Of a stretch of 36,784 nucleotides of DNA, positions 11,877-26,296 are shown in pieces. The DNA is taken from positions 1 through 36,784 of IMG/VR virus record IMGVR_UViG_3300037246_000748. One strand, given 5' to 3'. This DNA is from a virus. The notes below the pieces were generated by a model, which saw only the letters and a program-made list of their open reading frames with translations, was not told where the DNA came from and searched no databases. The translations under genes and the position numbers were made by a program. Position 1 is the first letter of the stretch, and each line of letters starts with the position of its first letter.

Positions 11877-12308
11877 GTGCTCGTGGGGCTCCACGTTCAC
11901 ATCCACATCCACGTCCCCATCGTTGTGGATGTCGGCCGGTCGATCCGCGATCCGCTTCACCTGCCAGGCCATGAACGCAGCGATGATGACGAGCGCACCC
12001 TGGCCGACTCGCACCAGGTTGGAGCCCCCGCAGGTGTTGCACTCCCGCTCCGCGATCTCCTGACGTAGGCCCACCAGGTTCGCGTTGAGGTTGGCGATCA
12101 TCGCACTGTCGGACATCACCGTGATCTCGTTGGTGATCTCCAGCGGTGGGAGGTTGATCGTGTTCTCCACGACAGGTGGCACCTGAGGGATCACGATTGG
12201 ATCCTGGCCAGCCAGTTGCCCGACCCAGAGGACTCCCGTGACAAGCAACAGGCTAAAGCTCCTGGCGCTCCGTAAAGTCTGTGGGCTATACCTCTGAATC
12301 GGGCGCAT
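11859..12308 (-). CDS. Membrane-anchored protein of the lysis region
   Basis: A 149-aa protein. An N-terminal hydrophobic segment or signal peptide (SFSLLLVTGVLWVGQLAG, about residues 17-34) is followed by a polar region, a helix with NANLVGLRQEIAERE, a CNTC pair, a second hydrophobic segment (GALVIIAAFMAWQV) near 105-118, and an Asp/His-rich tail. This could be a spanin-like or holin-associated protein, but no family is certain. ATG at 12308 is preferred because GGAG lies 7 nt before it; ATG at 12314 overlaps the previous stop. The stop lies in the loop of the terminator. Confidence 0.6.
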   Translation of the reverse strand: MRPIQRYSPQTLRSARSFSLLLVTGVLWVGQLAGQDPIVIPQVPPVVENTINLPPLEITNEITVMSDSAMIANLNANLVGLRQEIAERECNTCGGSNLVRVGQGALVIIAAFMAWQVKRIADRPADIHNDGDVDVDVNVEPHEHKKRGH

Positions 12309-12310
12309 GA

Positions 12311-12475
12311 TCATTCTCCGGTGTTGAGTGCGTCGAGGACCCAGGCGCTCGACTCTCGGACGAGCTGCCAGACCCGCTCGCCCACGTCGGGCAGGAAGAC
12401 CAGCAAGGCGACGATCACCAGGAACATGATCAGCATCAGCTTCTGGGTGCCGCTGACGTTGTCGAAGAACTTCAT
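12311..12475 (-). CDS. Small one-span membrane protein, possible holin
   Basis: A 54-aa protein with one clear membrane span (KLMLIMFLVIVALLVFLP, about residues 12-29), a short N terminus and a soluble helical C terminus with charged residues. Its place between the endolysin and another membrane protein suggests a holin-type or pinholin-type role, which would let the endolysin act. One-span holins are known but varied, so this is inference. Coupled to the next gene by ATGA. Confidence 0.58.
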   Translation of the reverse strand: MKFFDNVSGTQKLMLIMFLVIVALLVFLPDVGERVWQLVRESSAWVLDALNTGE

Positions 12476-12478
12476 GGC

Positions 12479-12985
12479 TCACACCCTCACCTCGAAGTGC
12501 GGCAGATCGTGGAACGTCTGGTCCTCCAGCTTCCGGTCGCCGTCCCAGTCACCACCCCACCGGATGTCGATCTCCATCTCCTCGGCCGTCCCGAGGACGA
12601 AGCCGCCGAAGTAGTACCACCTCGCCACCTCCCTGACGTAGCCCTCGACCAGGGCCATGACCTCGGCCTCCTGCTCGCCTGTGAGCTGCCCGGCCACGCT
12701 CTCTATACGGGAGAGCAGCTTCTGGGCCTGGGGCCAGGAGAGGGGATCTGGTGCAGCGTCAACGGCTTCCGCGAGGTCACGTACACCCTCCCCCGTGATG
12801 TGCTTCGAGTTCATCGTCTTGCTGACGCCCTTGGCGACGTTCTTCTCCTGCTGCTCGACGGTGCGCTCGGCCTCCAGGATGGTGTTGGGGAAGTTCTCGC
12901 CCACCCTCTTCATCAGGCGCTGCAGCTCGTCGTGCGCCGTGGCCAGGCGGGCCAGGCTCGTGGCCCCGTAGTTGTTGCCAGCCAT
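12479..12985 (-). CDS. M15-family endolysin (L-alanyl-D-glutamate peptidase-like)
   Basis: A 168-aa peptidoglycan peptidase of the VanY/T5-endolysin type. The N terminus LARLATAHDELQRLM matches the usual opening helix, SKHITGEG at 60-67 carries the zinc ligand His62, and the C terminus has WGGDWDG and FHDLPHFEV with Asp160 and His163, spaced like the catalytic Asp130 and zinc ligand His133 of T5 endolysin. The region between His62 and the second ligand is odd: Asp70 is one residue too far, and a 7-residue insertion (68-74) would make Asp76 the ligand. Activity is still likely. No cell-wall-binding domain or signal peptide. Confidence 0.85.
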   Translation of the reverse strand: MAGNNYGATSLARLATAHDELQRLMKRVGENFPNTILEAERTVEQQEKNVAKGVSKTMNSKHITGEGVRDLAEAVDAAPDPLSWPQAQKLLSRIESVAGQLTGEQEAEVMALVEGYVREVARWYYFGGFVLGTAEEMEIDIRWGGDWDGDRKLEDQTFHDLPHFEVRV

Positions 12986-15900
12986 CAGCGTCTCTGGTTG
13001 GTGAGCTGTCGGATCAGGGCCGCCCGGTTGACGTCGTCAATCCTGGGGCTGCGCCTGGGTGGGATCCCGGTGTTGACCACGGCCGCCGCGTTGGCCCGGC
13101 TCATGCCGCCATCACGGAACTGCCGGATCACTTCCTGCGAGGTGAGCCCGTGGCTGTTGATCGCCTTCAGTGCGAGCTGGTGGGCGTCCGCGAAGACCCT
13201 GGCCCGAGACCGCTCCGACCGATGGAAGGCCTCCGTCAGCTCCTCGTCCGTGACGGTGCCCCCACGGTTGGACACGCGGTTGAGGATCCGGTTCGCATCG
13301 TTCAGCCTGCGGTCCATCTCCGTGGTGCGGAAGCGCATGGCCTGACGGACGTCGGTCTTCTGCAGCCGGTGCCCTGTGACGACGGCCAGGAACTCCGTCG
13401 TCGCGTCGAACTCCTGGCCGAAGTTGTTGGTCTCCTGGTTGATGCCCTTCGCGATCCGCCTGGCGCTGGCGAAGGTGCCGGGCTCTATGGCACCCCACAG
13501 GTGTTCGAGGATGGCGAAGGCCTGGTCCACCTTGTGGTCCTCCGGGTTGAAGACCTGGCCGCCGGAACGCTTCAGGTTGCTGTTGATCTCCCCGAGCTTC
13601 CCGAACAGGATCTCCTCCCCGATGAACGGAGCAGCGGCCTGGAGGGTCGCCTCCAGGAGGGCCTCCTCCCAGTCGCCCTCGCCCGAGAACAGCCGCCGGA
13701 GGGGGTCACGCAGGTAGCTGTACGGATCCGTGTACGAGAGGTCGATGATCGAATAGACCCCGTCCACTGGCGGGCTGGTGTAGATCAGCGAGCTGTTCTC
13801 CTGCCACGGGGCCAGGAAGGGACGCAGATCCTTGTCCTGCTGGGCGTCCACGCCGTTCTTGAAGCGGGACGCTGCCGACGCCGCGTAGACGCCACCGGCC
13901 GCGACGGTGAGCCCGGCCATCCGGGTGGCCCCGATCTTACGGATCTCTGGGTTGGGAGAGCGGACCTCCTTGATGGCCAGGCTGATCGTGTGCCAGCCGG
14001 TGCGGAACACCTCGGCCGGGAACGAGACGAACGAGCCCATCAGGATGTTCTTCCGCAGCGCCTGGACCCCGGAGGAGATCATGCCGTAGTTCGGGTAGGT
14101 GTTCCTCACGATCCAGGCTGCGGTCTCTTCGACCTCGGCCTCGGTGGCGTTGGGCAGCGCCTTCCTGTACCGGGCGAACTCGTTCTCGAACGCGACGATC
14201 TTCCAGAGGTCGTCCTCGGCCCGGTAGATCGCGGTGGCTCCCTTGATGAACCCCCTCATCCCCTTGGAGAGCAGCCCCTCGTCGGGGCTGATGTTGTCCA
14301 GCCCCTTCCTGGAGGCGTCCCTCATCACGGCCGCCAGCTCTCCGGCGTGGGCGCTGCTGTCCACGACACCGAGCATCTGGATCCGCTTGTAGTACGACTC
14401 CCACGGGCTCTCGCCCGGCAGCAGGCCATCGCGGAGCCGGAGCCTGCGCTCGTTCTTCAGCCTCTGCGCGGTGCTCTGGGCCCCGGCGCGGGCCTGGACT
14501 TCGATGCCGACCTTCCCGGCGAGGAACCGCTTGGTCAGCCGCCCTCCCCTGCTGATGCCCGTGCTGGCGTTCACGGCCTGGATCGCCCGGCCGAAGTGCT
14601 GCAGCCGCCAGTGTCCGTTGGCCGTCGCGAAGCCAGCGTTGCCGATCAGGTTCCTGACGTGGGTCATCACGGACATGACCGTCTTGTCGAGCTTCACGAC
14701 GGCGTTCGCTTTCAGGTAGGCGCTGTAGAGCCAGTTCTTCTGGCCAGGCACATCGAACTCACGCTTGAAGGCGTCCGCGATCTCTCGGGTAGTGAAGAGA
14801 CCACTGAGCGGCTCCATCACCTTCGAGCCCTTGGCCGCGATGGGCACGATGAAGGAGCCGTTGGCGTTGGTCGTCTGGACTGTGTGGAAGAGGCCGTTCG
14901 GGTTGTCGGCTGTCGCCTTCAGGCTGTTCTTGACCTCGGTGAGGAAGCCGTGGCTGGAGAGGTCGCGAGCCATCTGCGACACGCTCCTGGCGTAGCGCAG
15001 CCTGACGTCGGTGTGCTCCCCCATCAGGGCCCGGATGGCGGGGTGGATGTCCTTCCGCTTGATCAGCATCGACAGGTTCTTGGACCCGAGGGTGCCGCCG
15101 GTCAGGAACTGGAGCGGGCTGTCCACCTGCTTGTCCAGGATGCCTTCGATGAGCCCCTGGAGCTGATTCTCGTCCAGGTCTGGGCGCTCCTTTCGCAGCC
15201 AGCTCCTGGCCCTGTTGACGATGGGCTTCGGGATGTTCTCAAGCTGCCAGGAGGGGGTGTCGAACACCTTGTAGGATCGGCTGAGATAGACGCCCAGGTT
15301 GTCTGCGATCACGGCGGCCAGGTCACCCTCGACCATGCCCGACTGGATCATCTGCTGGGAGAAGCCGTCCACCCTCTCGCGCATCTGCCTGACGATGGGC
15401 CGGAGCGGTTCCGGGATCCTGGACAGCGGGATCTGGCCACTCAGCGCAGCGTTGAGCCGACGCTTCTGGGAGGTGTTCATGTTGGGTGTGCCGTAGGCGT
15501 CCCGCAGGGCGTCATCGAACCGGCGCAGCGTGAACGTCATGTCCGTGATCTGAGCGCCGAACCACCCCTGGGACTTCAGCAGCAGCCGCCAGGCGCGGTG
15601 GGGGAGATCGCCAGGAGCTGTGAAGTTTCTCTGGAGGAAGGCACCCACTCGTCGCCCGGCTGCAGCGACGTCAACCTTCAGGGCTCCGGCCTTGGCACCG
15701 AGACGTCCTCTGGCCAGCTCCTTGCCCATGTTGAAGAAGCCTCCACGTCCGTTGGCCTGGGTGCCCTCGGGAGCCTTCGGTGGGATGGGATCCGTGACTC
15801 GCCTGGGGACTACCTCAGGGGCACGGGATGGGCCCTCGGCCGGTGGGGTGTGCTTGACCTCTACCTCAGGGTTATGAAGATCCCCCTGGGCGGCCCTCGC

Positions 15901-18648
15901 TGGTGCTAGTCGTCCAGCTTGCCCATCTCCCGCAGAGCGCCCTGGATCCCGTTGTGTATGTTCTGGGCTTCGATCTCGTCCCAGTCCACCCTCCCCAGTG
16001 CCGGATCGACGTTGCCTGGCGGCCCCTGCCTCTGGCTCGCCGGGAAAGAGGAGTCGTCCGTCGGGGATCTCTCCCCCGCTCGCGATGAGCCGGGGGTCCT
16101 GTCCTTTCGGAACGTCATTGGAGTACCTCTGGTGGGATGTGAAGAGGCCTGACTCGACCGCTTCATGGTACATCGCAGTAGGAGCGTCACCTACCTCATC
16201 TAAAATATACGCTTCCGGTATGTACTTGTCACTGTTTTTGAACCTCAGATAGGCCCGACGCGCTGCCTCCAGGGGCGGGATCTCGTTCAGCACGATGTGG
16301 ACTTCGTAGCCAGCCTTCCGCAGGTTGGCCGCCTCGTCTATGACGTGTCTCCGGCTCTTGCCGATCATCGGCATGACGATGTTGTCCCCGCGCAGCAACG
16401 CCGCTTTCAGCATCCTGTTGTGGGCGAGGAGGGACGACTCCCTGTGGACCGTGCCCGCTGCCCGGCCGCCGTCGTGCTCTGGCAGGCCCTTCTTCCACTC
16501 GTCGCTGTCGATCAGCAGCCCACGGATCGCCCTCACAATCGGGTTCGAGATCGTGGACTTCCCGGCCGCTGGCGGGCCGGTCACCATGTAGATGATCCGC
16601 TGCCGCCTCACAGCTCCCTCGAAGTAGGCACCGGCCTTCTTCCGAGCCTCAATGCCGCCCCAGAAGCCCGCGTTGTCTTCGGCCGTCAGCCTCGTGTCGA
16701 TGGGGTCGTGGACCTCCGCGACCCGCTGCGGATCCCAGACCGGCCCGGCCTCTGCCCTGGTATCGCCATCGGAGTGCAGGTTCGTGGTGTCGTTGGGGTC
16801 GCCTGGCTGCGGACGCCGACGTGCTGCGATCCAATCTGGATCGTTGTTCATCACCCGCTGCAGGGCGGGCCGATCCGGTGCCGCCAGGGCCGCGTCGTGC
16901 ATCGCCTGGTTCTCGGGGGTGAGCACCTTCGGCCGTCTGGTCAGGCCTGCGTCTGCTGGGTCGAGCTGGGAACCGGCACCAGGAGGAGTCACGTCTGCCG
17001 CCTCCGCTGCCGCCGCCCGCTCTTCTGCGTCCAGGCGCACCCCCTCCGAGTCAAGGGCCTCCGCGAGCGTCTGCTCGCTCAACGGTCTGTTCTCCCCTGC
17101 CGTGGACCTCCGTATCGGGAACGCCTCGGGGCCCGTCCTGGTGCCTCCCTGGGCCGTCGTGGGATCTCTGAAGCGGGGGTCCAGGTCCCCAGGTTTCTTG
17201 ATCTTGCCAGCGAACGGTGTCGCGCCGATCAGTGCGCTGGCCACGATCCCGAAGACGAGGTTGTTCGCTCGCTGCTGGGGGTTCTCGGCCTGGTACGCGA
17301 GATCGAACGGGATCCCCTCGACGGCCGCCTGCAGCATCCTGGTCCCACGAGTGACCGGGACGTTGGGGTTGAACGACTGCAGGAAGGCCCGCGTCCTCGT
17401 GCCCCTGGCAGCCATCGTCGCCGTCGCGGAGACGCCCACGTTGGTCAACCTGATCATGGCCCCGGCCGCTCCGAGGAAGCCCACGGCACCACCGACCTTC
17501 TCCCAGCCGGTGCGGTCCAGGGTGTCGAAGAGGTCCGTGATGGTCAGGGCCGTGGGCTCCAGACCGAACACGCCCCTGACTGCGGTGGTGGCCTTGTCGA
17601 TCAGGTCGTTCACATGGCTGTCGAAGCGCCCGCCGGTCTCCGCGTCGAGGAACGCACGACCGGCCGAGAGGGTCATCCTGACAGGCAGCGGGATCTTCTC
17701 GAACCTGGTCTGCAGCTCCTCCCTGGACTTCTCTATCGCAAGCCTGAGACGGTCGTGGTCCGTGACGGGTGTCCTGGCCGCGTCCTCAAGCGGTGGCGGG
17801 GGAGGGGTGACCCCCGTGCCGGTGGCCTCACGGGTGACGTCGGGCTGGGCGCGGACGACCGTCCTGGCTATGTCTTCCGGGTCGCGCTCCTTGATCCCCA
17901 TCTCTGCCAACGCTGCTTCACCGGCAGCGTTCAGGGACTCCCCGAGTGACATCGGCTCCTGAACGTGGGGGATCCTGGCGGGCTCTAGTCCGAGCGTCCT
18001 CTCGAAGAACCCAGGCTCCTGCCTCTGCCGCTCCAGCACCGCCTCCTGGGCGGTGGGGATCTGCGGAGCTGGCCCAGCATCGGGACGCTCCACGAACCCC
18101 CGCTCGAACGGATCGAAGACCTGGGTCTCGGGGTCGGGTCCACCGATCTCCCCGAGGGGCTGCATCTCCGTGGGCGCTCTCGTCTCAATGGGCGGCAGGC
18201 CAGCAGCTCGCCGCTCCATCCTGGTGCCACCGAGACCCAGCTCCTCCTCCGGCTCTTCCACGGCCGGTGCCGGGCGTGGCGGCATCCCGATCCGCCCCTC
18301 GTCCTGCCGGGGCCCGGTCTCCAGGAAGCCGTGCTGGAACACGCCCTCGCGACCACGAGGCTCTGCCTCTCTGATCACCTCCTCCGGCTCTTGCCCTCGA
18401 CGTTCAGCGAGGACCCGCGAGCGGTCGGCCGCCCTGGTCTGGTCTTCGGTGGCCGCTACTTCGGGGTCGATGGTGACGAGCATCCGTTCTTGGAGTTGCG
18501 CCTCGTCCCGCGCCCTACGCGATGCCCTCAGGGATTCGAGCGGATCGTCTGACGTGGCAGCAGAGTCACGGTCACGCTGCTGCCGGGCACGTCTCAGCTC
18601 CGCGAGTGGATCGTCCTGGAGCTGCTGGTTGGTCTGGCCGGTGGCCAT
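12985..18648 (-). CDS. Giant virion/polyvalent protein with zeta-toxin-like kinase domain
   Basis: An open frame of 1,887 codons, likely an ejected virion protein. Residues 1-330 are disordered and Pro/Glu/Arg-rich; 350-480 include a hydrophobic stretch (GGAVGFLGAAGA). A zeta-toxin-like P-loop kinase follows, about 683-850: Walker A GPPAAGKST (691-699), IDSDEW (713-718), and VHRESSLLAHN-type substrate region. Zeta kinases phosphorylate UDP-N-acetylglucosamine. The C-terminal half (about 975-1887) resembles large polyvalent phage proteins (LPD38-like). Codons for residues about 870-914 look non-coding in this frame, while the +1 frame is coding and stops at 15906 (see separate entry). If the frame really breaks, the products would be about 913 aa with kinase and 914 aa from ATG 15729, which has GGAGG upstream. 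No epsilon antitoxin seen. Confidence 0.75.
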   Translation of the reverse strand: MATGQTNQQLQDDPLAELRRARQQRDRDSAATSDDPLESLRASRRARDEAQLQERMLVTIDPEVAATEDQTRAADRSRVLAERRGQEPEEVIREAEPRGREGVFQHGFLETGPRQDEGRIGMPPRPAPAVEEPEEELGLGGTRMERRAAGLPPIETRAPTEMQPLGEIGGPDPETQVFDPFERGFVERPDAGPAPQIPTAQEAVLERQRQEPGFFERTLGLEPARIPHVQEPMSLGESLNAAGEAALAEMGIKERDPEDIARTVVRAQPDVTREATGTGVTPPPPPLEDAARTPVTDHDRLRLAIEKSREELQTRFEKIPLPVRMTLSAGRAFLDAETGGRFDSHVNDLIDKATTAVRGVFGLEPTALTITDLFDTLDRTGWEKVGGAVGFLGAAGAMIRLTNVGVSATATMAARGTRTRAFLQSFNPNVPVTRGTRMLQAAVEGIPFDLAYQAENPQQRANNLVFGIVASALIGATPFAGKIKKPGDLDPRFRDPTTAQGGTRTGPEAFPIRRSTAGENRPLSEQTLAEALDSEGVRLDAEERAAAAEAADVTPPGAGSQLDPADAGLTRRPKVLTPENQAMHDAALAAPDRPALQRVMNNDPDWIAARRRPQPGDPNDTTNLHSDGDTRAEAGPVWDPQRVAEVHDPIDTRLTAEDNAGFWGGIEARKKAGAYFEGAVRRQRIIYMVTGPPAAGKSTISNPIVRAIRGLLIDSDEWKKGLPEHDGGRAAGTVHRESSLLAHNRMLKAALLRGDNIVMPMIGKSRRHVIDEAANLRKAGYEVHIVLNEIPPLEAARRAYLRFKNSDKYIPEAYILDEVGDAPTAMYHEAVESGLFTSHQRYSNDVPKGQDPRLIASGGEIPDGRLLFPGEPEAGAARQRRSGTGEGGLGRDRSPEHTQRDPGRSAGDGQAGRLAPARAAQGDLHNPEVEVKHTPPAEGPSRAPEVVPRRVTDPIPPKAPEGTQANGRGGFFNMGKELARGRLGAKAGALKVDVAAAGRRVGAFLQRNFTAPGDLPHRAWRLLLKSQGWFGAQITDMTFTLRRFDDALRDAYGTPNMNTSQKRRLNAALSGQIPLSRIPEPLRPIVRQMRERVDGFSQQMIQSGMVEGDLAAVIADNLGVYLSRSYKVFDTPSWQLENIPKPIVNRARSWLRKERPDLDENQLQGLIEGILDKQVDSPLQFLTGGTLGSKNLSMLIKRKDIHPAIRALMGEHTDVRLRYARSVSQMARDLSSHGFLTEVKNSLKATADNPNGLFHTVQTTNANGSFIVPIAAKGSKVMEPLSGLFTTREIADAFKREFDVPGQKNWLYSAYLKANAVVKLDKTVMSVMTHVRNLIGNAGFATANGHWRLQHFGRAIQAVNASTGISRGGRLTKRFLAGKVGIEVQARAGAQSTAQRLKNERRLRLRDGLLPGESPWESYYKRIQMLGVVDSSAHAGELAAVMRDASRKGLDNISPDEGLLSKGMRGFIKGATAIYRAEDDLWKIVAFENEFARYRKALPNATEAEVEETAAWIVRNTYPNYGMISSGVQALRKNILMGSFVSFPAEVFRTGWHTISLAIKEVRSPNPEIRKIGATRMAGLTVAAGGVYAASAASRFKNGVDAQQDKDLRPFLAPWQENSSLIYTSPPVDGVYSIIDLSYTDPYSYLRDPLRRLFSGEGDWEEALLEATLQAAAPFIGEEILFGKLGEINSNLKRSGGQVFNPEDHKVDQAFAILEHLWGAIEPGTFASARRIAKGINQETNNFGQEFDATTEFLAVVTGHRLQKTDVRQAMRFRTTEMDRRLNDANRILNRVSNRGGTVTDEELTEAFHRSERSRARVFADAHQLALKAINSHGLTSQEVIRQFRDGGMSRANAAAVVNTGIPPRRSPRIDDVNRAALIRQLTNQRR
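15906..16118 (-). other. Overlapping +1-frame coding segment (frameshift or nested gene)
   Basis: In the frame +1 to the giant gene, bases about 16043-15909 read as a normal protein end (core GRVDWDEIEAQNIHNG, then REMGKLDD) and stop with TAG at 15906. About 85% of third codon positions are G or C here, against about 36% in the main frame over the same bases (hand count). The switch can be joined at TTT CCC G (16047-16041), where a +1 slip would give a product of about 913 aa. Alternatively a nested gene of 70 aa could start at ATG 16118, which has AGAGG 7 nt before it. A base error in the assembly would look the same. Confidence 0.6.
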
Positions 18649-18650
18649 GC

Positions 18651-19931
18651 CTACCTCTCCGGCTCGTCACCCACCTGGGATCCGGGCTGTCCCGAGATCA
18701 CCGGAGCGGGGCCAGCGGCTCGCATGATCGCAGCTCTGTCGGCTGCCGTGATACCAGGGAAGACCCTGTCGAGTTCGGCGGTCCTGTCCGCGAAGTTGAG
18801 GTCTTCGATCTCAGCAGCAAAGCCTGGAATCTCTGCCGAGGTGATGGACTGACGCGGCTCGTTCCCACCCAGGCCTGATGCCTCTGCGGGCCCAGCTCCT
18901 GGCTGTGCCGTCCGCGACACCGGCTGCAGGAACGTGCCAGCCATCTCGCGAGCCTCACGCCGTGCGTCCTGGAACCGGGCCAGCCCGACCGAGAACGCCT
19001 CTGCGGGGCCCATGTACCCGCCGTCGATCAGCGCCCTCTTCTTCGCCGTCAGCTTCTCCTCGCTGGACAGCTCGTCCGCTTCGATGTCGTCAATCCGATC
19101 CTGCATCCGGTCGAGGTCGTCCTGGATGGCTTCCTGCCGGGCCTGCGGGACCGGCCTCAGGAAGTCCTCGAACTGATCCGGGTTGTCCTCGAAGATCCCC
19201 GCCTGGGCCTCCGAGATCGGCTTGTTCACGTCCTCGGCCTGCTGCATGATGTCCGCGATCCTGGCCGCTCTCGTGCGCTCGCCACCCGTGGTCGTGGGCG
19301 TCTCCCTCCCGGTCTCTGCTGCCGTGTCCCTACCCGACTGGGCAGAGATCGACTGCAGCCGCTGCCTGGCGTCCTCAGGGTTGCGCTGCAGGACGAGGAT
19401 CTCCTCCTCGGACACACCGGCCTGCCGGAGGGCGTTCGCTATCTCAGTGCGCTCCTCGGCCGTCGCGGCTGCCGCCTGCTCCCTCTCGGGCCTGCCGAGG
19501 TCGCGCTCCAGTGCAGCGTCGGATCTGACCCGCTGCTCCCTGCCCCTGGGGTTGAAGAAGACCTCATCGTCCGTGCCGGGGATCTCACCCATCGACCGCC
19601 GTGACTGATCTGAGATCTCACTGACTGCCGAGAACGCCCCGCTGATCTGCGACCCCGCTGGCGCGACGGCCCCCACCTGCTGGCGGATAGCCCTCGTGGT
19701 GGGGTCGGCCAGGGTGGAGAGTTCTGGGCTGCGAGCGATCTCCAGGCGGGTGTTGAACTCAGCCTCTGCCTTCCTCGCCTCACGGTCCTCCTGGCGGGCG
19801 TTGAACTCAGCCCCAGCTCGTGCATCTGCCTGGTCAGCCCTTCGGAGCTGCCGGGCCCGCTCGAAGCTCCTGATGAACGTCGAGAGGATGTCGTTGTCTC
19901 TGTCCGGTAGGACGCTGGGTCGGAAGGTCAC
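18651..19931 (-). CDS. Internal virion/ejection-type protein
   Basis: A 426-aa protein, mostly charged helix and coiled-coil-like (long runs of Ala, Glu, Arg and Gln), with no membrane segment or catalytic motif. This composition and the place just before the giant virion protein fit internal core or DNA-ejection proteins of podoviruses. The start is GTG at 19931, overlapping the previous stop (GTGA). The low-complexity middle makes it hard to match to a named family. Confidence 0.62.
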   Translation of the reverse strand: MTFRPSVLPDRDNDILSTFIRSFERARQLRRADQADARAGAEFNARQEDREARKAEAEFNTRLEIARSPELSTLADPTTRAIRQQVGAVAPAGSQISGAFSAVSEISDQSRRSMGEIPGTDDEVFFNPRGREQRVRSDAALERDLGRPEREQAAAATAEERTEIANALRQAGVSEEEILVLQRNPEDARQRLQSISAQSGRDTAAETGRETPTTTGGERTRAARIADIMQQAEDVNKPISEAQAGIFEDNPDQFEDFLRPVPQARQEAIQDDLDRMQDRIDDIEADELSSEEKLTAKKRALIDGGYMGPAEAFSVGLARFQDARREAREMAGTFLQPVSRTAQPGAGPAEASGLGGNEPRQSITSAEIPGFAAEIEDLNFADRTAELDRVFPGITAADRAAIMRAAGPAPVISGQPGSQVGDEPER

Positions 19932-20491
19932 GAGCCGATCCTATCCCCGATGGCCTCACCGATCCCCTGGCCAATGCCGGGCAGCACCAAGCCACCAGCA
20001 AAGCCCAAGGCCTTGCTGAAGAACCCGCCACCCTCCGCGTTCTCCTCGGCCGTGGCCCGGTCGAACGCGCCACCCAGGAGATCCACCTGCTGCCCGAGGA
20101 GATCGGAGCCCGTGCGCTGCAGGCCCTGGATGTTCTGGAGGTTCTGCCTCGAAGCCTCCAGCGACTGCTGGGCGATGGCGTTCGAGACGCGCCGGTTGAA
20201 GTCCTGGAAGAGGCGGCCAGCGTCCTGCTGGAAGAAGCCGGTGCGGAGACGGCCACGACCGACCGACTGTCCGACGAGGCTCTGGAAGTCCTCGCCCAGG
20301 CCCTCGCGAGCTTCGTCCAGGAACCCGGATCCGAAGTCGCTGACCGCCTGGCTGGGGTCGAACGCGAGGGAACGCTCCAGGCCAGCACGGCGAGTTGCAG
20401 CTCCTGATCTGTCGGTCTCCTCTGAGAGCCGGTTGAACCGCTGCTGTGATCTGCGCTGCTGACCTTCCGAACTGAAGAACTTCTCGGCCAT
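19928..20491 (-). CDS. DNA-ejection-like internal virion protein
   Basis: A 187-aa protein. Residues 1-130 are helical and Gln/Arg-rich, with GRGRLRTGFFQQDAGR near 78-93, a pattern seen in phage ejection-type proteins. The C-terminal 35 residues are Gly/Ala-rich and hydrophobic (KALGFAGGLVLPGIGQGIG), a glycine-zipper-like segment that could enter membranes, as in P22-type transfer proteins. It would be packed in the head or tail and cross the envelope at infection. Confidence 0.65.
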   Translation of the reverse strand: MAEKFFSSEGQQRRSQQRFNRLSEETDRSGAATRRAGLERSLAFDPSQAVSDFGSGFLDEAREGLGEDFQSLVGQSVGRGRLRTGFFQQDAGRLFQDFNRRVSNAIAQQSLEASRQNLQNIQGLQRTGSDLLGQQVDLLGGAFDRATAEENAEGGGFFSKALGFAGGLVLPGIGQGIGEAIGDRIGS

Positions 20492-20997
20492 TATGGGGCC
20501 TCCGCTACGAGCGATTCGCGCACCACTTCATATTCTAGTTCCACCTGATCGAATATCAAATCTCCTGCCGCCAGCCCGTTGATGGCCTCGGCCAGGAGCT
20601 GGAACCACGCGCCCCTCAGGCCAGTCCTGAATCGTGCCGGGCCGGTAAGCGGGAAGGGCAGACTGAGCCCCATCTCGAACCGCTCCGTCAGCCGGTCTGG
20701 TGTGAGGTCTGGCAGGCTGAAGATCAGCCGCTCATCTGGCTGTCCGTTCGTCCCGTCGAGGGGCACGAAGTCCACGATGGGCGTGAGCCGGATGTCCACG
20801 GCCATGTCGTGGGTGATCGTGATGTAGACGTTCTTGAAGACTGCCTCGCCGCTGGCCCCGGCAGGAGCGACCGCGTTGCTGAGAGCTGACGGCACGTAGG
20901 CGACCGTGTTGTCCTCGAAGCCCACGCCAACCTCAAGGACGCTGGCCTCGACGTCTCTGCCCCCGTAGAAGAGGGTCGGAATCGGGGTGCCAGTCAT
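20491..20997 (-). CDS. Structural protein between nozzle and ejection genes
   Basis: A 168-aa, beta-rich protein without recognised domain. ATG at 20997 overlaps the nozzle-like gene stop (ATGA); an earlier start would read back into that gene. It has few cysteines and no signal peptide. Its position suggests a tail or virion component. Function unknown. Confidence 0.6.
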   Translation of the reverse strand: MTGTPIPTLFYGGRDVEASVLEVGVGFEDNTVAYVPSALSNAVAPAGASGEAVFKNVYITITHDMAVDIRLTPIVDFVPLDGTNGQPDERLIFSLPDLTPDRLTERFEMGLSLPFPLTGPARFRTGLRGAWFQLLAEAINGLAAGDLIFDQVELEYEVVRESLVAEAP

Positions 20998-23735
20998 ACG
21001 ACCACCAGATCCACGAACCGGACCCCGCCAGTCAGAGCCCACTCACTGTCGTAGCGGTTCGAGAAGGGGATGACCGACCCGAAGCAACGCACCTTGTGGG
21101 TGATCGCGACCCGAACTGCGTCCCCAACGAGGAAGCCCATGCTCGTGATGTTGTGGGAGCTGAAGCCCGACACGTTGGGTAATGCGACCGTCTCGAAGGT
21201 CCAGGGGACGGCTGCGGTGAGGTTCCTGAGGTAGATCTTGGTGCTGTGGTCTCCTGGGGGAACGCCCGCAGCGGTGGGCCTTGGGCAGGTTCGCAGGCCA
21301 CCACTCCCAGCAGTTCCGTCCGGTGTGTTCGTATTCTGCCAGAACAAGTTCAGGAAGAAGAAGCCGCCAGCGATAATGATACCGGCCTGGCTGATGGCGT
21401 CCTGATTTTGCGCGTCAGGACCAGCGTAGCACTGCAAGAGGTTGCTGGCGGGGATCTGGACGTTCGCGCCCTTCGTGAACTGCATTTGGTAGGAGTTGAG
21501 CTTCTCAATCTGGGGCGCGGGCAGAGCCTCGCCGTCCGTGAAGTTGTCTTGGAATCGGAGCGGGTATCCGGGCGATGCAGCGTTGTAGGTCGCACGGAAA
21601 AACGGGCCCGTAACCCCCGGAACGAAGTCACCCCTGAGTGGAGGCGTTGGGTCCGAGTCGCTCGCGGTGCCATCCGGGGACGTCTCAGGACCAGCCTCCT
21701 GAACCGTCAAGAAGACGTTGATGTCGAGCAGCTCGTGGCCAGGAGGTAGGATGGTATCGACGTTCATCCGGGAGTCGTTGCTGTTGAGCATCTCCCAGAG
21801 CCCATCGTTGTCACCTACGCGCTCCCTGAGGACGATGGGGTCTGCTATCGTGGTGGTGGATCCCTGACTGGCAACGGGCCAGTCGTCTGGGTCGCTGGAC
21901 GTGTAGCCAGGCGAGAACTGCCCGCCCAGGATGTAGCGCATACTGAACTTGTAGTCCGTGAGCGGTTGGATCGCCTTGCCCGAGGACTGGCTCTCTAAGG
22001 TGACCGTGACGATCTGAAAATCCTGGGCATTGGCCGGGACACGCCCGGTGAGTGTGTAGTTCGCCCCACCGTCTTCCGAGACGTGGATCTCAATGTCTTC
22101 AGCGCCGATCTGGCCGACGTTCTCGAAGAGGATCTCCACCTGGATGGCCATCGCCGGGCCGACCCCGAACGCCAGGGTAGTCGTGGGCTGGAACTGACGG
22201 TTGTCTGTGAAGTTGATAGTAGCGGAGGTCGTGCTGAGAGCGATGAGGTTACCGACTGAACCTGACGTTCTCGCTCTAAGGAGGATGCCATTCGGACCCC
22301 CGGATGGGGACGATACCGTGGGGTGTGGTGTCACGGTCGAGGCCGCGTAGTCCACACCAGGAGTGCCCGTCGCGTTCAGGACGTGGAACAGGTTGGTGTT
22401 TGAAGCCTGCCGATCTATCCCGATCTGCAAGTTGCCATCGACGTCCGTCAGCACGGTCTGGTAGGTGTAGACCTTCCCGTCAATCGTGACCGTATCGCCG
22501 TCCAAAACCTGGATGGGAAAATTGGCGTTCGCTTCGGCCTCATCATCGAACACCAGGTCCTCGGGGGCTCCAGCGGGTGGCCCGCCGCCGCCAGCCTGGG
22601 ACTGAGTGGAGAAGAACAGGCCAGAGGACTGCGCCACCTCACCCAGCTCGTAGTAGCTCCACCGGGGACGGTTCGGATCGCGGATAGAGAGAGCGTAGAC
22701 GCGCTGCCCCCAGACGAACTGCACGACCCTGGTACGCGGGTCATAGGCGGCGAAGGCGTCCTGGGGATCAGACTCAGCCACCAGTGAGGCCGGGTCAGGC
22801 CCGCCGATGTCGAGCGGTACGGCGATGTCCTTCGACGGCCCGCCCGTCGTGACCCTGGGGCCCTGGGTGGACCAGAAGAACACGTTGCCCGCGATGCTCA
22901 CGGCCAGCCTGCTGCCCACAGCTCCGAAGAGCGAGTCGGCCAGGCGTATGCCGAAGGTGTCGGGGGAGTACCCGAAGATCTCGTAGGTCTCCGTCTCCTT
23001 GAACACCATCAGGGTGGGGCCCGCACTGCGGCAGACCATCACGGTCTCGCCCTGCTGGCCAGCCTCGAAGAAAGCGAAGTCCTCGAAGACCCTGCTGTTC
23101 CCGGAGTTGCTGACCCTGACCACGTCTCCGCGCACCGGGTCATCGAAGTTGCCGTAGCCCCAGCCGAAGATGTACGACAGGTGGCGCACGACCCCACGGA
23201 AGAAGACGTCCCGCTGGCCGTTGATGCCGTCCAGGTCAGCCTGGAGGTTGGAGAGCTGTGGGTGATCCTCCGGGTCGTAGACCTGGGTGACGATCCGAGA
23301 GGTCGGGTTCGGCTCATCGTGGGCGATGAAGAACTTGTTGTCGGAGTCGGCCCCGATGATGATCGGCGGCTCGAATGTGACGCCTCCGTCGAGCGTCCCG
23401 AGGAGGCCGACTGCGACTGGTGCCGTCCCGTCGATCAGCATCCGATTGAGCCACACCTCCCGGTTGCTGCCGCCCGTCGTGTTGTAGCCGACGCCCATGG
23501 CTGCGGCCTCGGAGCGCAGCGGTTCGAGCATGACCGTCACATCAAGATCGGTGGGCCCATCATCCTGGAGGACGCTGGCTACGGCCAGCCCCTGTCGGAC
23601 CTGTGCCTTGCCGTCGAAGAGGGAGACGTTCCTCAGGTCCTTGAAGCTGGTGGGCCTCACCACCATGACGCCCTTGGATCGTTCGAGGCCCTCCCCGTAG
23701 GGCAGCGTGAGGATCTTCCGGTCTCTGTCGGCCAT
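20994..23735 (-). CDS. Nozzle-like tail protein
   Basis: A 913-aa structural protein. The first 450 residues resemble tail nozzle or packaged-DNA stabilisation proteins of podoviruses (T7 gp12, P22 gp10 type): beta-propeller-like repeats, with MVFKETETYEIFG, a GAVGSRLAVSIAGNVFFWS segment and YELGEV blocks. The C-terminal half is beta-rich with lectin- or sheet-like composition and may be surface exposed. It would form the lower tail through which DNA passes. ATG at 23735 shares a base with the previous stop; a longer reading would run into the upstream gene. Confidence 0.72.
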   Translation of the reverse strand: MADRDRKILTLPYGEGLERSKGVMVVRPTSFKDLRNVSLFDGKAQVRQGLAVASVLQDDGPTDLDVTVMLEPLRSEAAAMGVGYNTTGGSNREVWLNRMLIDGTAPVAVGLLGTLDGGVTFEPPIIIGADSDNKFFIAHDEPNPTSRIVTQVYDPEDHPQLSNLQADLDGINGQRDVFFRGVVRHLSYIFGWGYGNFDDPVRGDVVRVSNSGNSRVFEDFAFFEAGQQGETVMVCRSAGPTLMVFKETETYEIFGYSPDTFGIRLADSLFGAVGSRLAVSIAGNVFFWSTQGPRVTTGGPSKDIAVPLDIGGPDPASLVAESDPQDAFAAYDPRTRVVQFVWGQRVYALSIRDPNRPRWSYYELGEVAQSSGLFFSTQSQAGGGGPPAGAPEDLVFDDEAEANANFPIQVLDGDTVTIDGKVYTYQTVLTDVDGNLQIGIDRQASNTNLFHVLNATGTPGVDYAASTVTPHPTVSSPSGGPNGILLRARTSGSVGNLIALSTTSATINFTDNRQFQPTTTLAFGVGPAMAIQVEILFENVGQIGAEDIEIHVSEDGGANYTLTGRVPANAQDFQIVTVTLESQSSGKAIQPLTDYKFSMRYILGGQFSPGYTSSDPDDWPVASQGSTTTIADPIVLRERVGDNDGLWEMLNSNDSRMNVDTILPPGHELLDINVFLTVQEAGPETSPDGTASDSDPTPPLRGDFVPGVTGPFFRATYNAASPGYPLRFQDNFTDGEALPAPQIEKLNSYQMQFTKGANVQIPASNLLQCYAGPDAQNQDAISQAGIIIAGGFFFLNLFWQNTNTPDGTAGSGGLRTCPRPTAAGVPPGDHSTKIYLRNLTAAVPWTFETVALPNVSGFSSHNITSMGFLVGDAVRVAITHKVRCFGSVIPFSNRYDSEWALTGGVRFVDLVVV

Positions 23736-26296
23736 CAGCTCCAGCCAGTGGGGGGAGCGGGGGGTGCCTGGAAGAACGCGCCCTGGAGGAAGGCTTCCAT
23801 CTCCAGGATCTGGGTGTCTGACACTTCGATGTTGTGGCCAGAGTACCACGCGAGCTTCATCGGGGAGCCCTCAAAGAAGCGGTAGTTGCCGATCATCATC
23901 GTAGGATAGGTGATGAGGGTTCCGGTGCCAATCGAACTCCCCACCTCCACCCCGTTCACCCTGATGATCCGACCCCCATCTCCGGCCCTGCAAGTGATCT
24001 GCAGCCTGTCCCCTTCAGCCACGAGGCCGGGAGCGGTCCTGGTGTTGTCATCGCCGCCGCTGTCGTTGTAGTCGAACGCCACCGTGCCGTCCTGGAGGAT
24101 GGCGACCAGGAGGTTCCTGCGGACCCGATTATCGTTCCCACCGAGGAGGACGATGTGGCCTTGCGTGAGGTCGGTCGCTTCGCATACGAGGAAGACTGTC
24201 ACGCGCCGTCCTTGGGGGTCTCCCTGTGGCCCGGCGTTGTAGCCGAGCCCAAGGCCACCGTCGAATACGTCCATGCGACACGAGAGGGTGGAGAAGTCCA
24301 CCACACCCAGCGCCCGGCCATTCGGATCCCAGCCTTTCTCCTCCCAGGTGGGGCGCGGGGAACCGTTGCCGGTTACCGTTACTGCCCCCGGCACGGTGCT
24401 GCCCGAGTCGTCGGGCCAGGTCCCGAAGAAGCCCGACCCCACCGGATTTTCGACAAGCGGGAGGGGCTCAGGCCCCCTGGAGTCCAGTTCAATCCTCTGC
24501 TCCGCGATCACCGGCTGCACGGGAGGATCGACAGCGGCGGTCCAGGGCGTGTCACCAGGGACGATGATGGGAGGGGGCTCGAACTCCCACTCCGTGCCGA
24601 TGGAGATCTGGAAGGTAAACGCCAGGAACCTCTCGTACTCTGCGATCTGCTGCGTGGTGAGGAGTCCCCCGAACGCCGCGAAGTAGACGATCAGCCGGTC
24701 TAGGCCACCGACCACACCGACGCCCGGCCCAGCCTGCTGTGGCTGAGACTCGCCCAGGGAGGGTCTGTTCATTTCCTCCAAGAGGCGGGTCGCGCTTGTG
24801 TTCCTAGCTATCTCTTTGCCGTTGAGCCGCATGGTCGCCCCTGTCCGTGGCCCGGTGAGTGCGGAGTGCGTCACTGTGATGATGACGCTGTCGCCAGCCT
24901 TCACGAGCCCCGGTGCGCTCTCCAGGGAGTAGGAGCTTCCAGGCTGTACCGAACTGCCGAACGACTCCTCATCCATGTGGTGCATGGCCACCGAGCCATC
25001 GGATTGGACCCACACGCTCGTCTTGAACGGGTTCCCAATCACCGGGATGATCCCCGACGTGCCACCGAAGAGGCAGGCGTGTTCCGAGATGTCCGTGCAG
25101 CGCATGACGCCGATGTAGCTGTACTCGTTCCCCGGCCAGTGGGTGTTCTGGGGGTCATTCCCGCCACCGTTCCAGGCGACACTGGTCTGCTGGAGGACGG
25201 GAGCGCCGGGGGGCTCGCCCACGAACCTGACGGCGTCGATCTGGCGCTTGAGGTTCCACCCGTTCTTCACGAAGAGGACGTTGCCCGCGCCGAAGCCAGG
25301 CAGGATACCAGCGTCGGTGCGGCCCTGGGGGTCGGTTATCTCCAAGTCCTGCCAGCCCACCCCGCCCTCGTCCCCACGGATGTTCTCCTCGTTCGCGTAA
25401 TCCATGCCGTCGCTGCGAATTTTACGGACATCGAACTCCACGATGGGCCGGAAGAGGTCGGTCGGCTTGGGAGCCGGGCCCTCGACGGTTCCGGGGAGCA
25501 GAGGCAGCGGTTCGGGGATCCAGATCGTTGTACCGGGCGGGAGGATGTCAGAGGGCACCGGAGGGGGCTCAGTCAGCGGATCGGCGGTGAACGCGATGTA
25601 CGCGACCCGCTGTTCCTCGGTGGCCGCAGCCAAGCCCACACCCCAGCCCATGGCACCGAGGATGCGCCTGGCAGCGGCGAGACTGTTCACCGTAGCGTCA
25701 ACGCTCACGGGCTCGTCATCTAAGTCCCCGAACCACGACGTTATCTGCCAGTCGTCCAGTGAGGGTGAGGTGAGGTTCGCCGTCCTCCGAACCCGGATCC
25801 AGGCCCACTCCGGGACCTGCACGGCCTCCTGCATGAGTCCGCTCAGTGGGACGCCCGTAGAGCCGTTGATGTAGGAGAGCGTCTGGCTTCTGTACGGCCC
25901 GCTGTCCTGATGCTGAAGCGCCCCGCCGATGAAGTTCATGTCAGAGGCAGGGAAGCCGACGAGGCCCGCGAGGTTCCACACTGGCCCGTTGCTCGACCAG
26001 TTGAAGATCGTGCCCACGTTATACATCCGGCAGAGCATCTCACCGAAGATGATCTGGTTGTCGAAGCTGTCGAGCCCGAACCCGTAACCTTGTTGGCCGC
26101 CAGCGTGGCCGGTCATCTCGAAGTAGTTGCCTTCGACGGGGTCGTTCGCGATGGCGACTGCGGTAGGAGAACTCGTGCCGATCCCGAACTCCGTGATGCC
26201 CGAGGGGAGGCCAGCGGCGACCTCGAACTCGCTGAAGTCAGAGGCTCCTACGAGGATCCCGTTGACGGTCGTGGGGACACCTGACGGGACGCCCAT
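23735..26296 (-). CDS. Tail appendage protein with tandem lectin-like domains
   Basis: An 853-aa protein with three beta-sandwich, concanavalin/laminin-G-like regions: about 1-240, 280-555 and 600-853. The last two share a repeat, APGLV followed by GD, then IT and an R-x-NG motif, and each ends with a conserved strand and helix (YFAAFGGLLTTQQI and WYSGHNIEVSDTQI), typical of LamG-like domains. Pro-rich linkers separate them. It sits between connector and nozzle genes and likely forms a spike or appendage that binds sugars on the host surface. Receptor unknown; no depolymerase motif seen. Confidence 0.7.
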   Translation of the reverse strand: MGVPSGVPTTVNGILVGASDFSEFEVAAGLPSGITEFGIGTSSPTAVAIANDPVEGNYFEMTGHAGGQQGYGFGLDSFDNQIIFGEMLCRMYNVGTIFNWSSNGPVWNLAGLVGFPASDMNFIGGALQHQDSGPYRSQTLSYINGSTGVPLSGLMQEAVQVPEWAWIRVRRTANLTSPSLDDWQITSWFGDLDDEPVSVDATVNSLAAARRILGAMGWGVGLAAATEEQRVAYIAFTADPLTEPPPVPSDILPPGTTIWIPEPLPLLPGTVEGPAPKPTDLFRPIVEFDVRKIRSDGMDYANEENIRGDEGGVGWQDLEITDPQGRTDAGILPGFGAGNVLFVKNGWNLKRQIDAVRFVGEPPGAPVLQQTSVAWNGGGNDPQNTHWPGNEYSYIGVMRCTDISEHACLFGGTSGIIPVIGNPFKTSVWVQSDGSVAMHHMDEESFGSSVQPGSSYSLESAPGLVKAGDSVIITVTHSALTGPRTGATMRLNGKEIARNTSATRLLEEMNRPSLGESQPQQAGPGVGVVGGLDRLIVYFAAFGGLLTTQQIAEYERFLAFTFQISIGTEWEFEPPPIIVPGDTPWTAAVDPPVQPVIAEQRIELDSRGPEPLPLVENPVGSGFFGTWPDDSGSTVPGAVTVTGNGSPRPTWEEKGWDPNGRALGVVDFSTLSCRMDVFDGGLGLGYNAGPQGDPQGRRVTVFLVCEATDLTQGHIVLLGGNDNRVRRNLLVAILQDGTVAFDYNDSGGDDNTRTAPGLVAEGDRLQITCRAGDGGRIIRVNGVEVGSSIGTGTLITYPTMMIGNYRFFEGSPMKLAWYSGHNIEVSDTQILEMEAFLQGAFFQAPPAPPTGWS

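What the first reader, a model, noticed from the sequence alone, without database searches (positions are those of the whole stretch)
15906..16118. Coding frame switch after the kinase domain: programmed frameshift, nested gene or split gene
For about 140 nt the +1 frame has GC-rich third positions (about 85% by hand count, against about 36% for the main frame) and ends at a stop, though the main frame stays open. The slip-capable TTT CCC G is at 16047-16041. Outcomes: a 913-aa kinase-ended form plus a 914-aa protein from 15729, a 1,887-aa fusion, or a nested 70-aa product from 16118 that could even be an antitoxin.
Basis: seen in the sequence. Interest (0 to 1): 0.85.

Follow-up and report, generated by a model that had tools for sequence, protein, structure and literature searches.

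The report
Hidden small gene inside phage gene
Inside a giant phage gene that fuses a toxin-like kinase to a virion-type protein, a second reading frame most likely encodes a separate 70-residue protein with its own start signal, and related phages carry similar hidden small genes in the same family of giant genes.

Summary
From about 16044 to 15906 (minus strand) the +1 frame looks coding (codon LLR 27 nats, above every control stretch of true frame-0 sequence), while the 1,887-aa main frame stays open. An 86%-identical relative (L002) shows the same pattern, the same TAG and conserved +1 residues, so this is not an assembly error.

Relatives point to the mechanism. The main ORF is a polyvalent protein. 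Scanning relatives with the same codon test found more +1 stretches. Where two genomes could be compared, selection switches from frame 0 to +1 around an ATG, usually with a Shine-Dalgarno (L019/L020: 11 of 12 substitutions at nested third positions; L027/L152: 66% nested versus 38% main-frame identity).

The window fits this: ATG 16118, preceded by AGAGGT-6 nt (the parent gene's own SD core), and a promoter-like element at 16232-16204, all conserved. I therefore favour an out-of-frame nested gene for a 70-aa protein (about 0.68). A programmed +1 frameshift is second (about 0.15): slip heptamer not conserved, next codon common, no stimulator found. A split gene is unlikely: no shared downstream start. 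Function is unknown; an antitoxin role is speculation. No expression data exist.

The parts
12985..18648 (-). parent gene: 1887-aa polyvalent-type protein (N-terminal part, zeta-toxin-like kinase, conserved ~900-aa C-terminal module)
   Evidence: open frame; Pfam Zeta_toxin 7e-9 and AAA_33 at aa 682-816; PHROG 22602 virion structural protein at aa 1472-1749; C-terminal module shared with many phage giant ORFs, some carrying ART-PolyVal/LPD domains
16201..16605 (-). zeta-toxin-like P-loop kinase domain (aa 682-816; homology to other phage proteins runs on to about aa 862)
   Evidence: Pfam and PHROG matches; tblastn to Cyanophage PSS2, Bacteroides phages and haloviruses
15906..16118 (-). nested +1-frame gene, ATG..TAG, 70 aa: MTFRKDRTPGSSRAGERSPTDDSSFPASQRQGPPGNVDPALGRVDWDEIEAQNIHNGIQGALREMGKLDD
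   Evidence: codon LLR, conservation in L002, ATG and SD conserved, parallels in relatives
16125..16130 (-). Shine-Dalgarno AGAGGT, 6 nt before ATG 16118; same core as at the parent gene start (18648) and at 26296
   Evidence: sequence; conserved in L002 inside a 49-nt identical run; strong SD before only 37 of 802 ATGs in the window
16204..16232 (-). sigma70-like promoter candidate GTGACA-N17-TATATT (10/12), ends 85 nt before the nested ATG
   Evidence: only promoter hit in 12000-20000 (0.5 expected); L002 has CTGACA-N17-TATATT at the same place
16041..16047 (-). TTTCCCG, the proposed slip heptamer
   Evidence: present, but TTCCCCG in L002
15969..16044 (-). 76-nt stretch identical in L002; strongest synonymous constraint of the ORF (0 observed, 3.7 expected in 20 codons)
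   Evidence: consistent with dual coding, but longer identical runs exist in the C-terminal half
12985..15888 (-). C-terminal module; homology with L012 starts at about aa 923, just after the nested stop

Best explanation
A nested, out-of-frame gene. The giant 1,887-aa polyvalent protein is read straight through in frame 0. Within its mRNA, ribosomes also start at ATG 16118, which has its own Shine-Dalgarno (AGAGGT, 6 nt spacing) and perhaps its own promoter (16232-16204). They read the +1 frame to TAG 15906 and make a separate 70-aa protein: a disordered N-terminal 45 residues and a C-terminal helix. In frame 0 most of the same DNA serves as the end of the kinase and the linker to the C-terminal module. 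Shown by sequence: the second coding frame, its conservation, the conserved start and SD, and the same arrangement in relatives. Inferred: actual initiation at 16118, promoter use, and function. My guess at function is a small partner that acts on or beside the neighbouring module.
For: Codon usage favours +1 over frame 0 by 27.3 and 23.6 nats in two genomes, above every control window. +1 residues and TAG are conserved while frame 0 drifts. ATG 16118 has AGAGGT-N6, the SD core of the parent gene, in both genomes. A promoter-like element is conserved upstream. Relatives: the same scan of polyvalent ORFs gives 13 candidates in 516 kb plus L002, all +1, mostly with an SD; no candidate outside polyvalent ORFs appeared in about 178 kb of other long ORFs. 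L019/L020: last frame-0-synonymous change at -44 and 11 of 12 changes after the ATG at nested third positions. L027/L152: nested [14,13,39], 66% against 38% identity. Family n150: five genomes, Met and stop conserved, nested identity 51-79% against frame 0 34-64%, host frame open in all. L040 has a +1 stop (TGA) two codons before its ATG, leaving a frameshift almost no room there.
Against: In the window/L002 pair the first 26 nested codons (16118-16045) change like frame 0: five nonsynonymous changes in the nested frame, so +1 constraint is visible only after 16044. That fits a frameshift too. The codon signal in that part is weak (3.6% of controls as high). Only two lineages carry this nested protein and no homologue was found elsewhere. 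P=0.02 for +1 conservation is modest. The relatives' nested proteins are unrelated in sequence, so they support the arrangement, not this gene directly. No expression data.
Confidence: 0.68

Rival explanations
1. Programmed +1 ribosomal frameshift near CCC-GGC (16044) or later in the 76-nt identical stretch. Most ribosomes make the 1,887-aa fusion; some shift and end at TAG 15906, giving a 913-aa kinase-ended protein with a 44-aa +1 tail (dnaX-like logic).
For: +1 constraint becomes visible right after CCC; 76 nt without a substitution and strongest synonymous constraint there; CCC-G can re-pair in +1; both forms would be usable, since the C-terminal module is a separate gene in phage Y3.
Against: Heptamer not conserved (TTC CCC G in L002); GGC is the commonest Gly codon, so no slow A site; no clear stimulatory fold, z from -1.8 to +1.05; the only upstream SD-like run is about 24 nt away; the ATG+SD would be coincidental; relatives point to nested starts.
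Confidence: 0.15
2. Relic: two once separate genes (kinase with its own tail; C-terminal module) were fused by an old indel, and the +1 tail is no longer translated.
For: Module boundary lies right after the +1 stop; position counts in the overlap alone are not significant.
Against: Codon bias, TAG and residues are kept in two genomes that differ at 22% of kinase residues; the family is normally fused in frame.
Confidence: 0.1
3. Split gene: the kinase part ends in +1 and the C-terminal module starts separately at ATG 15729.
For: The ATG exists in the window; phage Y3 has a separate C-terminal gene.
Against: L002 has no start there and the two genomes share no ATG/GTG/TTG in the stretch; frame 0 is constrained soon after the TAG ([4,1,12]); relatives are fused.
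Confidence: 0.04
4. Sequencing or assembly indel, or chance codon bias in a low-complexity linker.
For: The frame-0 linker is low in complexity.
Against: The relative L002 has the same structure; controls never reach the score; the +1 residues are conserved.
Confidence: 0.03

Closest known systems
Polyvalent proteins of phages and conjugative elements (Iyer et al. 2017, PMC5512222)
   Same: Giant multidomain phage protein with swappable enzyme modules; that paper lists zeta-toxin-like kinases and GGDEF domains among them. Here zeta-like kinase; GGDEF at the same place in L012; ART-PolyVal/LPD domains in relatives.
   Different: That paper's text has no mention of frameshift or overlapping (term search); nested +1 genes were not described there.
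Nested phage genes of the Rz/Rz1 type (from general knowledge)
   Same: A small gene wholly inside another, in the +1 frame, with its own start.
   Different: No lipobox or membrane helix apparent here; the host gene is a virion-type enzyme fusion, not a lysis gene.
Intragenic antitoxins of Rpn nucleases (PMC10327210)
   Same: Gene-within-a-gene; a small variable product made separately from a toxic parent.
   Different: RpnS is the C-terminal domain of its parent, so in frame; this product is out of frame and no antitoxin activity is known.
Programmed +1 frameshifts in bacteria and phages (prfB; Listeria phage PSA; from general knowledge)
   Same: A CCC-N P-site codon that could slip +1.
   Different: No stop or rare codon in the A site, no conserved heptamer, no stimulator found.

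Membership tests
Nested (out-of-frame overlapping) gene | alternative frame shows coding signature within an intact host frame | tested here: met
Nested (out-of-frame overlapping) gene | purifying selection in the nested frame between genomes | tested here: met
   Window/L002 modest, P=0.02 and absent in the first 26 codons; strong in relatives L019/L020 and L027/L152
Nested (out-of-frame overlapping) gene | own conserved start codon and ribosome-binding site | tested here: met
   ATG 16118 with AGAGGT-N6 in both genomes
Nested (out-of-frame overlapping) gene | separate product is translated | not testable with these tools
   needs ribosome profiling, reporter or peptides
Programmed +1 ribosomal frameshift | conserved slip site | tested here: not met
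   TTTCCCG against TTCCCCG; only CCC-GGC is shared
Programmed +1 ribosomal frameshift | slow A-site codon (stop or rare) | tested here: not met
   GGC 43.5 per 1000, commonest Gly codon
Programmed +1 ribosomal frameshift | stimulatory structure or nearby SD | tested here: inconclusive
   z -0.07, -1.78, -0.23 and +1.05 for four segments; SD-like run too far away
Programmed +1 ribosomal frameshift | fusion peptide across the frames | not testable with these tools
   needs mass spectrometry or a reporter
Polyvalent protein | giant multidomain phage protein with a known effector domain and variable modules | tested here: met
   zeta-like kinase; GGDEF in L012; ART-PolyVal and LPD1/3/5 in relatives
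Polyvalent protein | packaged in the virion and injected | not testable with these tools
   PHROG virion structural match only
Zeta toxin family kinase | Walker A P-loop and family profile match | tested here: met
   PF06414 7e-9 above cut-off; GPPAAGKST in the translation
Zeta toxin family kinase | phosphorylates UDP-N-acetylglucosamine or is toxic | not testable with these tools
   no assay; the structure model was too poor (pLDDT 36)
Toxin-antitoxin pair with the nested protein as antitoxin | nested protein binds and neutralises the kinase | not testable with these tools
   no homologue of known function

The most novel reading that the evidence does not exclude
Polyvalent genes of phages recurrently house small out-of-frame genes in their inter-module linkers, and these encode cognate control proteins (antitoxin, chaperone or release factors) that keep the neighbouring toxic module silent while virions are built; the window's 70-aa protein would be the partner of its zeta-like kinase.
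Probability: 0.15. Interest if true: 0.85.

Novelty: new variant of a known kind. Interest (0 to 1): 0.62.

Why it matters
If right, gene callers would tend to miss a class of small phage proteins, because each lies inside a giant ORF in another frame. The arrangement recurs in several lineages and always in +1, so it can be predicted and tested. It bears on how phages manage the toxic enzymes they package, and it warns against reading such frame switches as programmed frameshifts.

Tried and rejected
Frameshift was my first reading because the +1 constraint begins at CCC. I moved away from it after the relatives showed ATG+SD starts. Homologues of the 70-aa protein: none in Pfam, NCBIfam or PHROGs, none beyond L002 among 17 viral contigs with a VDWDEIE-type motif. 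Kinase plus +1 tail against phages and plasmids: alignments stop at the kinase end, so no support for a tail belonging to the kinase. AF2 of the kinase region failed (pLDDT 36); the nested protein gave only a C-terminal helix, residues 46-64. L117/L019/L020 at 9219/6219: rejected as nested because frame 0 is the better conserved. L012 after its GGDEF domain: no codon support for another frame. L162 and L163 hold homologues of the L027 nested protein outside a long host ORF, but both look like possible prophage remnants, so I do not count them as standalone genes. Nested small proteins of L019, L027 and L040 have no tblastn match in the phage records. Metagenome contigs could not be searched.

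Full report
WHAT IS THERE. The window is a phage record with a P22-like portal gene at 33453-35819. On the minus strand, 12985-18648 is one open frame of 1,887 codons. It carries a zeta-toxin-like P-loop kinase at aa 682-816 and a C-terminal half that matches a virion structural family (PHROG 22602).

Over 16038-15900 the third positions of the +1 frame are 85-88% GC, while those of the main frame fall to 38-57%. A codon model trained on this phage's other genes prefers the +1 frame by 27.3 nats over 16044-15909, and by 23.6 nats in the relative L002. Among frame-0 stretches of the same length the largest value is 16.7. A second IMG/VR contig (L001) is identical. L002 is 86% identical, keeps both frames open and has the same TAG. 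Upstream of 16044 substitutions fall at main-frame third positions [1,2,16]; in the overlap [10,9,5]; after the TAG [4,1,12]. In the 54 most divergent bases the +1 residues are conserved beyond chance (P=0.02) and the frame-0 residues are not (P=0.76). So the +1 frame very likely codes for protein here, and frame 0 is translated on both sides.

WHAT THE PARENT GENE IS. A scan with the C-terminal module found 506 relatives in viral contigs, 80 of them kept. Most are giant ORFs of about 1,200-3,200 aa; some carry ART-PolyVal, LPD1, LPD3 or LPD5 domains. L012 has a GGDEF domain where the window has the kinase. These are the marks of polyvalent proteins (Iyer et al. 2017, PMC5512222), for which that paper lists zeta-like kinases and GGDEF domains. 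Homology of the C-terminal module begins just after the +1 stop, so the frame switch sits at a module boundary.

FRAMESHIFT OR NESTED GENE. I first took this for a programmed +1 frameshift, because +1 constraint appears just after TTT-CCC-G. Three things speak against it. The heptamer is TTCCCCG in L002. GGC after CCC is the commonest glycine codon (43.5 per 1000). Folding of the segment is ordinary. In contrast, the in-phase ATG at 16118 has AGAGGT six bases upstream. The parent gene (18648) and the gene at 26296 use the same AGAGGT core. A strong SD stands before only 4.6% of all ATGs in the window. SD and ATG lie in a 49-nt stretch identical in L002. A promoter-like element GTGACA-N17-TATATT ends 85 nt upstream and is kept in L002 although its spacer varies.

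RELATIVES TIP THE BALANCE. The same codon test over polyvalent ORFs (516 kb) gave 13 candidates plus L002. All are in +1 and most have an SD. In about 178 kb of other long ORFs no candidate appeared; the single 'other' hit listed was L002 itself, mis-sorted. Where homologous pairs exist the result is clear. L019/L020 (Halopseudomonas prophage type, L146): within the 52-aa nested ORF, 11 of 12 substitutions are at nested third positions; the last frame-0-synonymous change is 44 nt before the ATG. L027/L152 (L152 is Azomonas agilis): nested [14,13,39], 66% identity against 38% in frame 0; this gene sits between KAWFGDWE and GEPAVFHHGT of an ART-type domain, a linker that is 17 residues in other members. 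Family n150: five genomes, start and stop conserved, nested identity 51-79% against 34-64% in frame 0, host frame open across it in all. In L040 a +1 stop lies two codons before the nested ATG, which leaves a frameshift almost no room. Nested starts, not frameshifts, best explain these; by parsimony the same holds for the window.

LIMITS. The nested proteins of different lineages are mostly unrelated, so relatives support the arrangement and not this particular gene. In the window/L002 pair the first 26 nested codons show no +1 constraint; they overlap the end of the kinase, which dominates. Only two lineages have this gene. The scan method favours GC-rich genomes, and its thresholds were chosen by me after seeing the window. 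Nothing here shows translation.

FUNCTION. The 70-aa protein is predicted as a disordered N-terminal part and a helix at 46-64; its last 20 residues vary most. No family matches. A partner or antitoxin of the neighbouring kinase is possible, by analogy with intragenic antitoxins (PMC10327210), but untested.

NOVELTY. Nested genes are known and polyvalent proteins are known. I found no description of recurrent out-of-frame genes inside polyvalent genes in the library searched; most subscription papers are not covered. I rate it a new variant of a known kind.

Noticed in passing
L027 6192-6416, L152 9177-9404, L019 3774-3932, L020 3495-3653, L150 7404-7616, L157-L161: Out-of-frame (+1) small genes inside polyvalent ORFs, supported by comparison of genomes.
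   Followed up: yes
L040 2295-2480, L041 2172-2297, L114 6636-6836, L039/L148 (3336/6336), L018 4566-4757, L034 1098-1190, L059 1134-1292: Further +1 candidates with codon support but no sufficiently divergent homologue to test; several lie just before a 'LxxQTExELAxQA'-like segment, as if that linker were a hot spot.
   Followed up: partly
L012 6638-6650: After the GGDEF domain the run GCG AAA AAA GTG could slip; the -1 frame reads AKKSGDN, like the end of a GGDEF domain (AKxxGRN). Codon test gives no support.
   Followed up: partly
L012 4244-9676 against window 12985-18648: Same N-terminal and C-terminal parts with a GGDEF domain in place of the zeta-like kinase: a cargo module swap within one protein family.
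   Followed up: partly
window 16232-16204: Conserved promoter-like element with unusual AT-rich codons (TAT ATT TTA) in a GC-rich gene; none of the relatives' nested genes tested has one.
   Followed up: partly
window 23735-23849: ORFs 20994-23849 (GTG) and 23735-26296 overlap by 115 nt; the start of the former is probably called too early.
   Followed up: no
window 23735-26296: Weak Laminin_G_3/concanavalin-like match near the C terminus (just below cut-off), as in tail or receptor-binding proteins.
   Followed up: no
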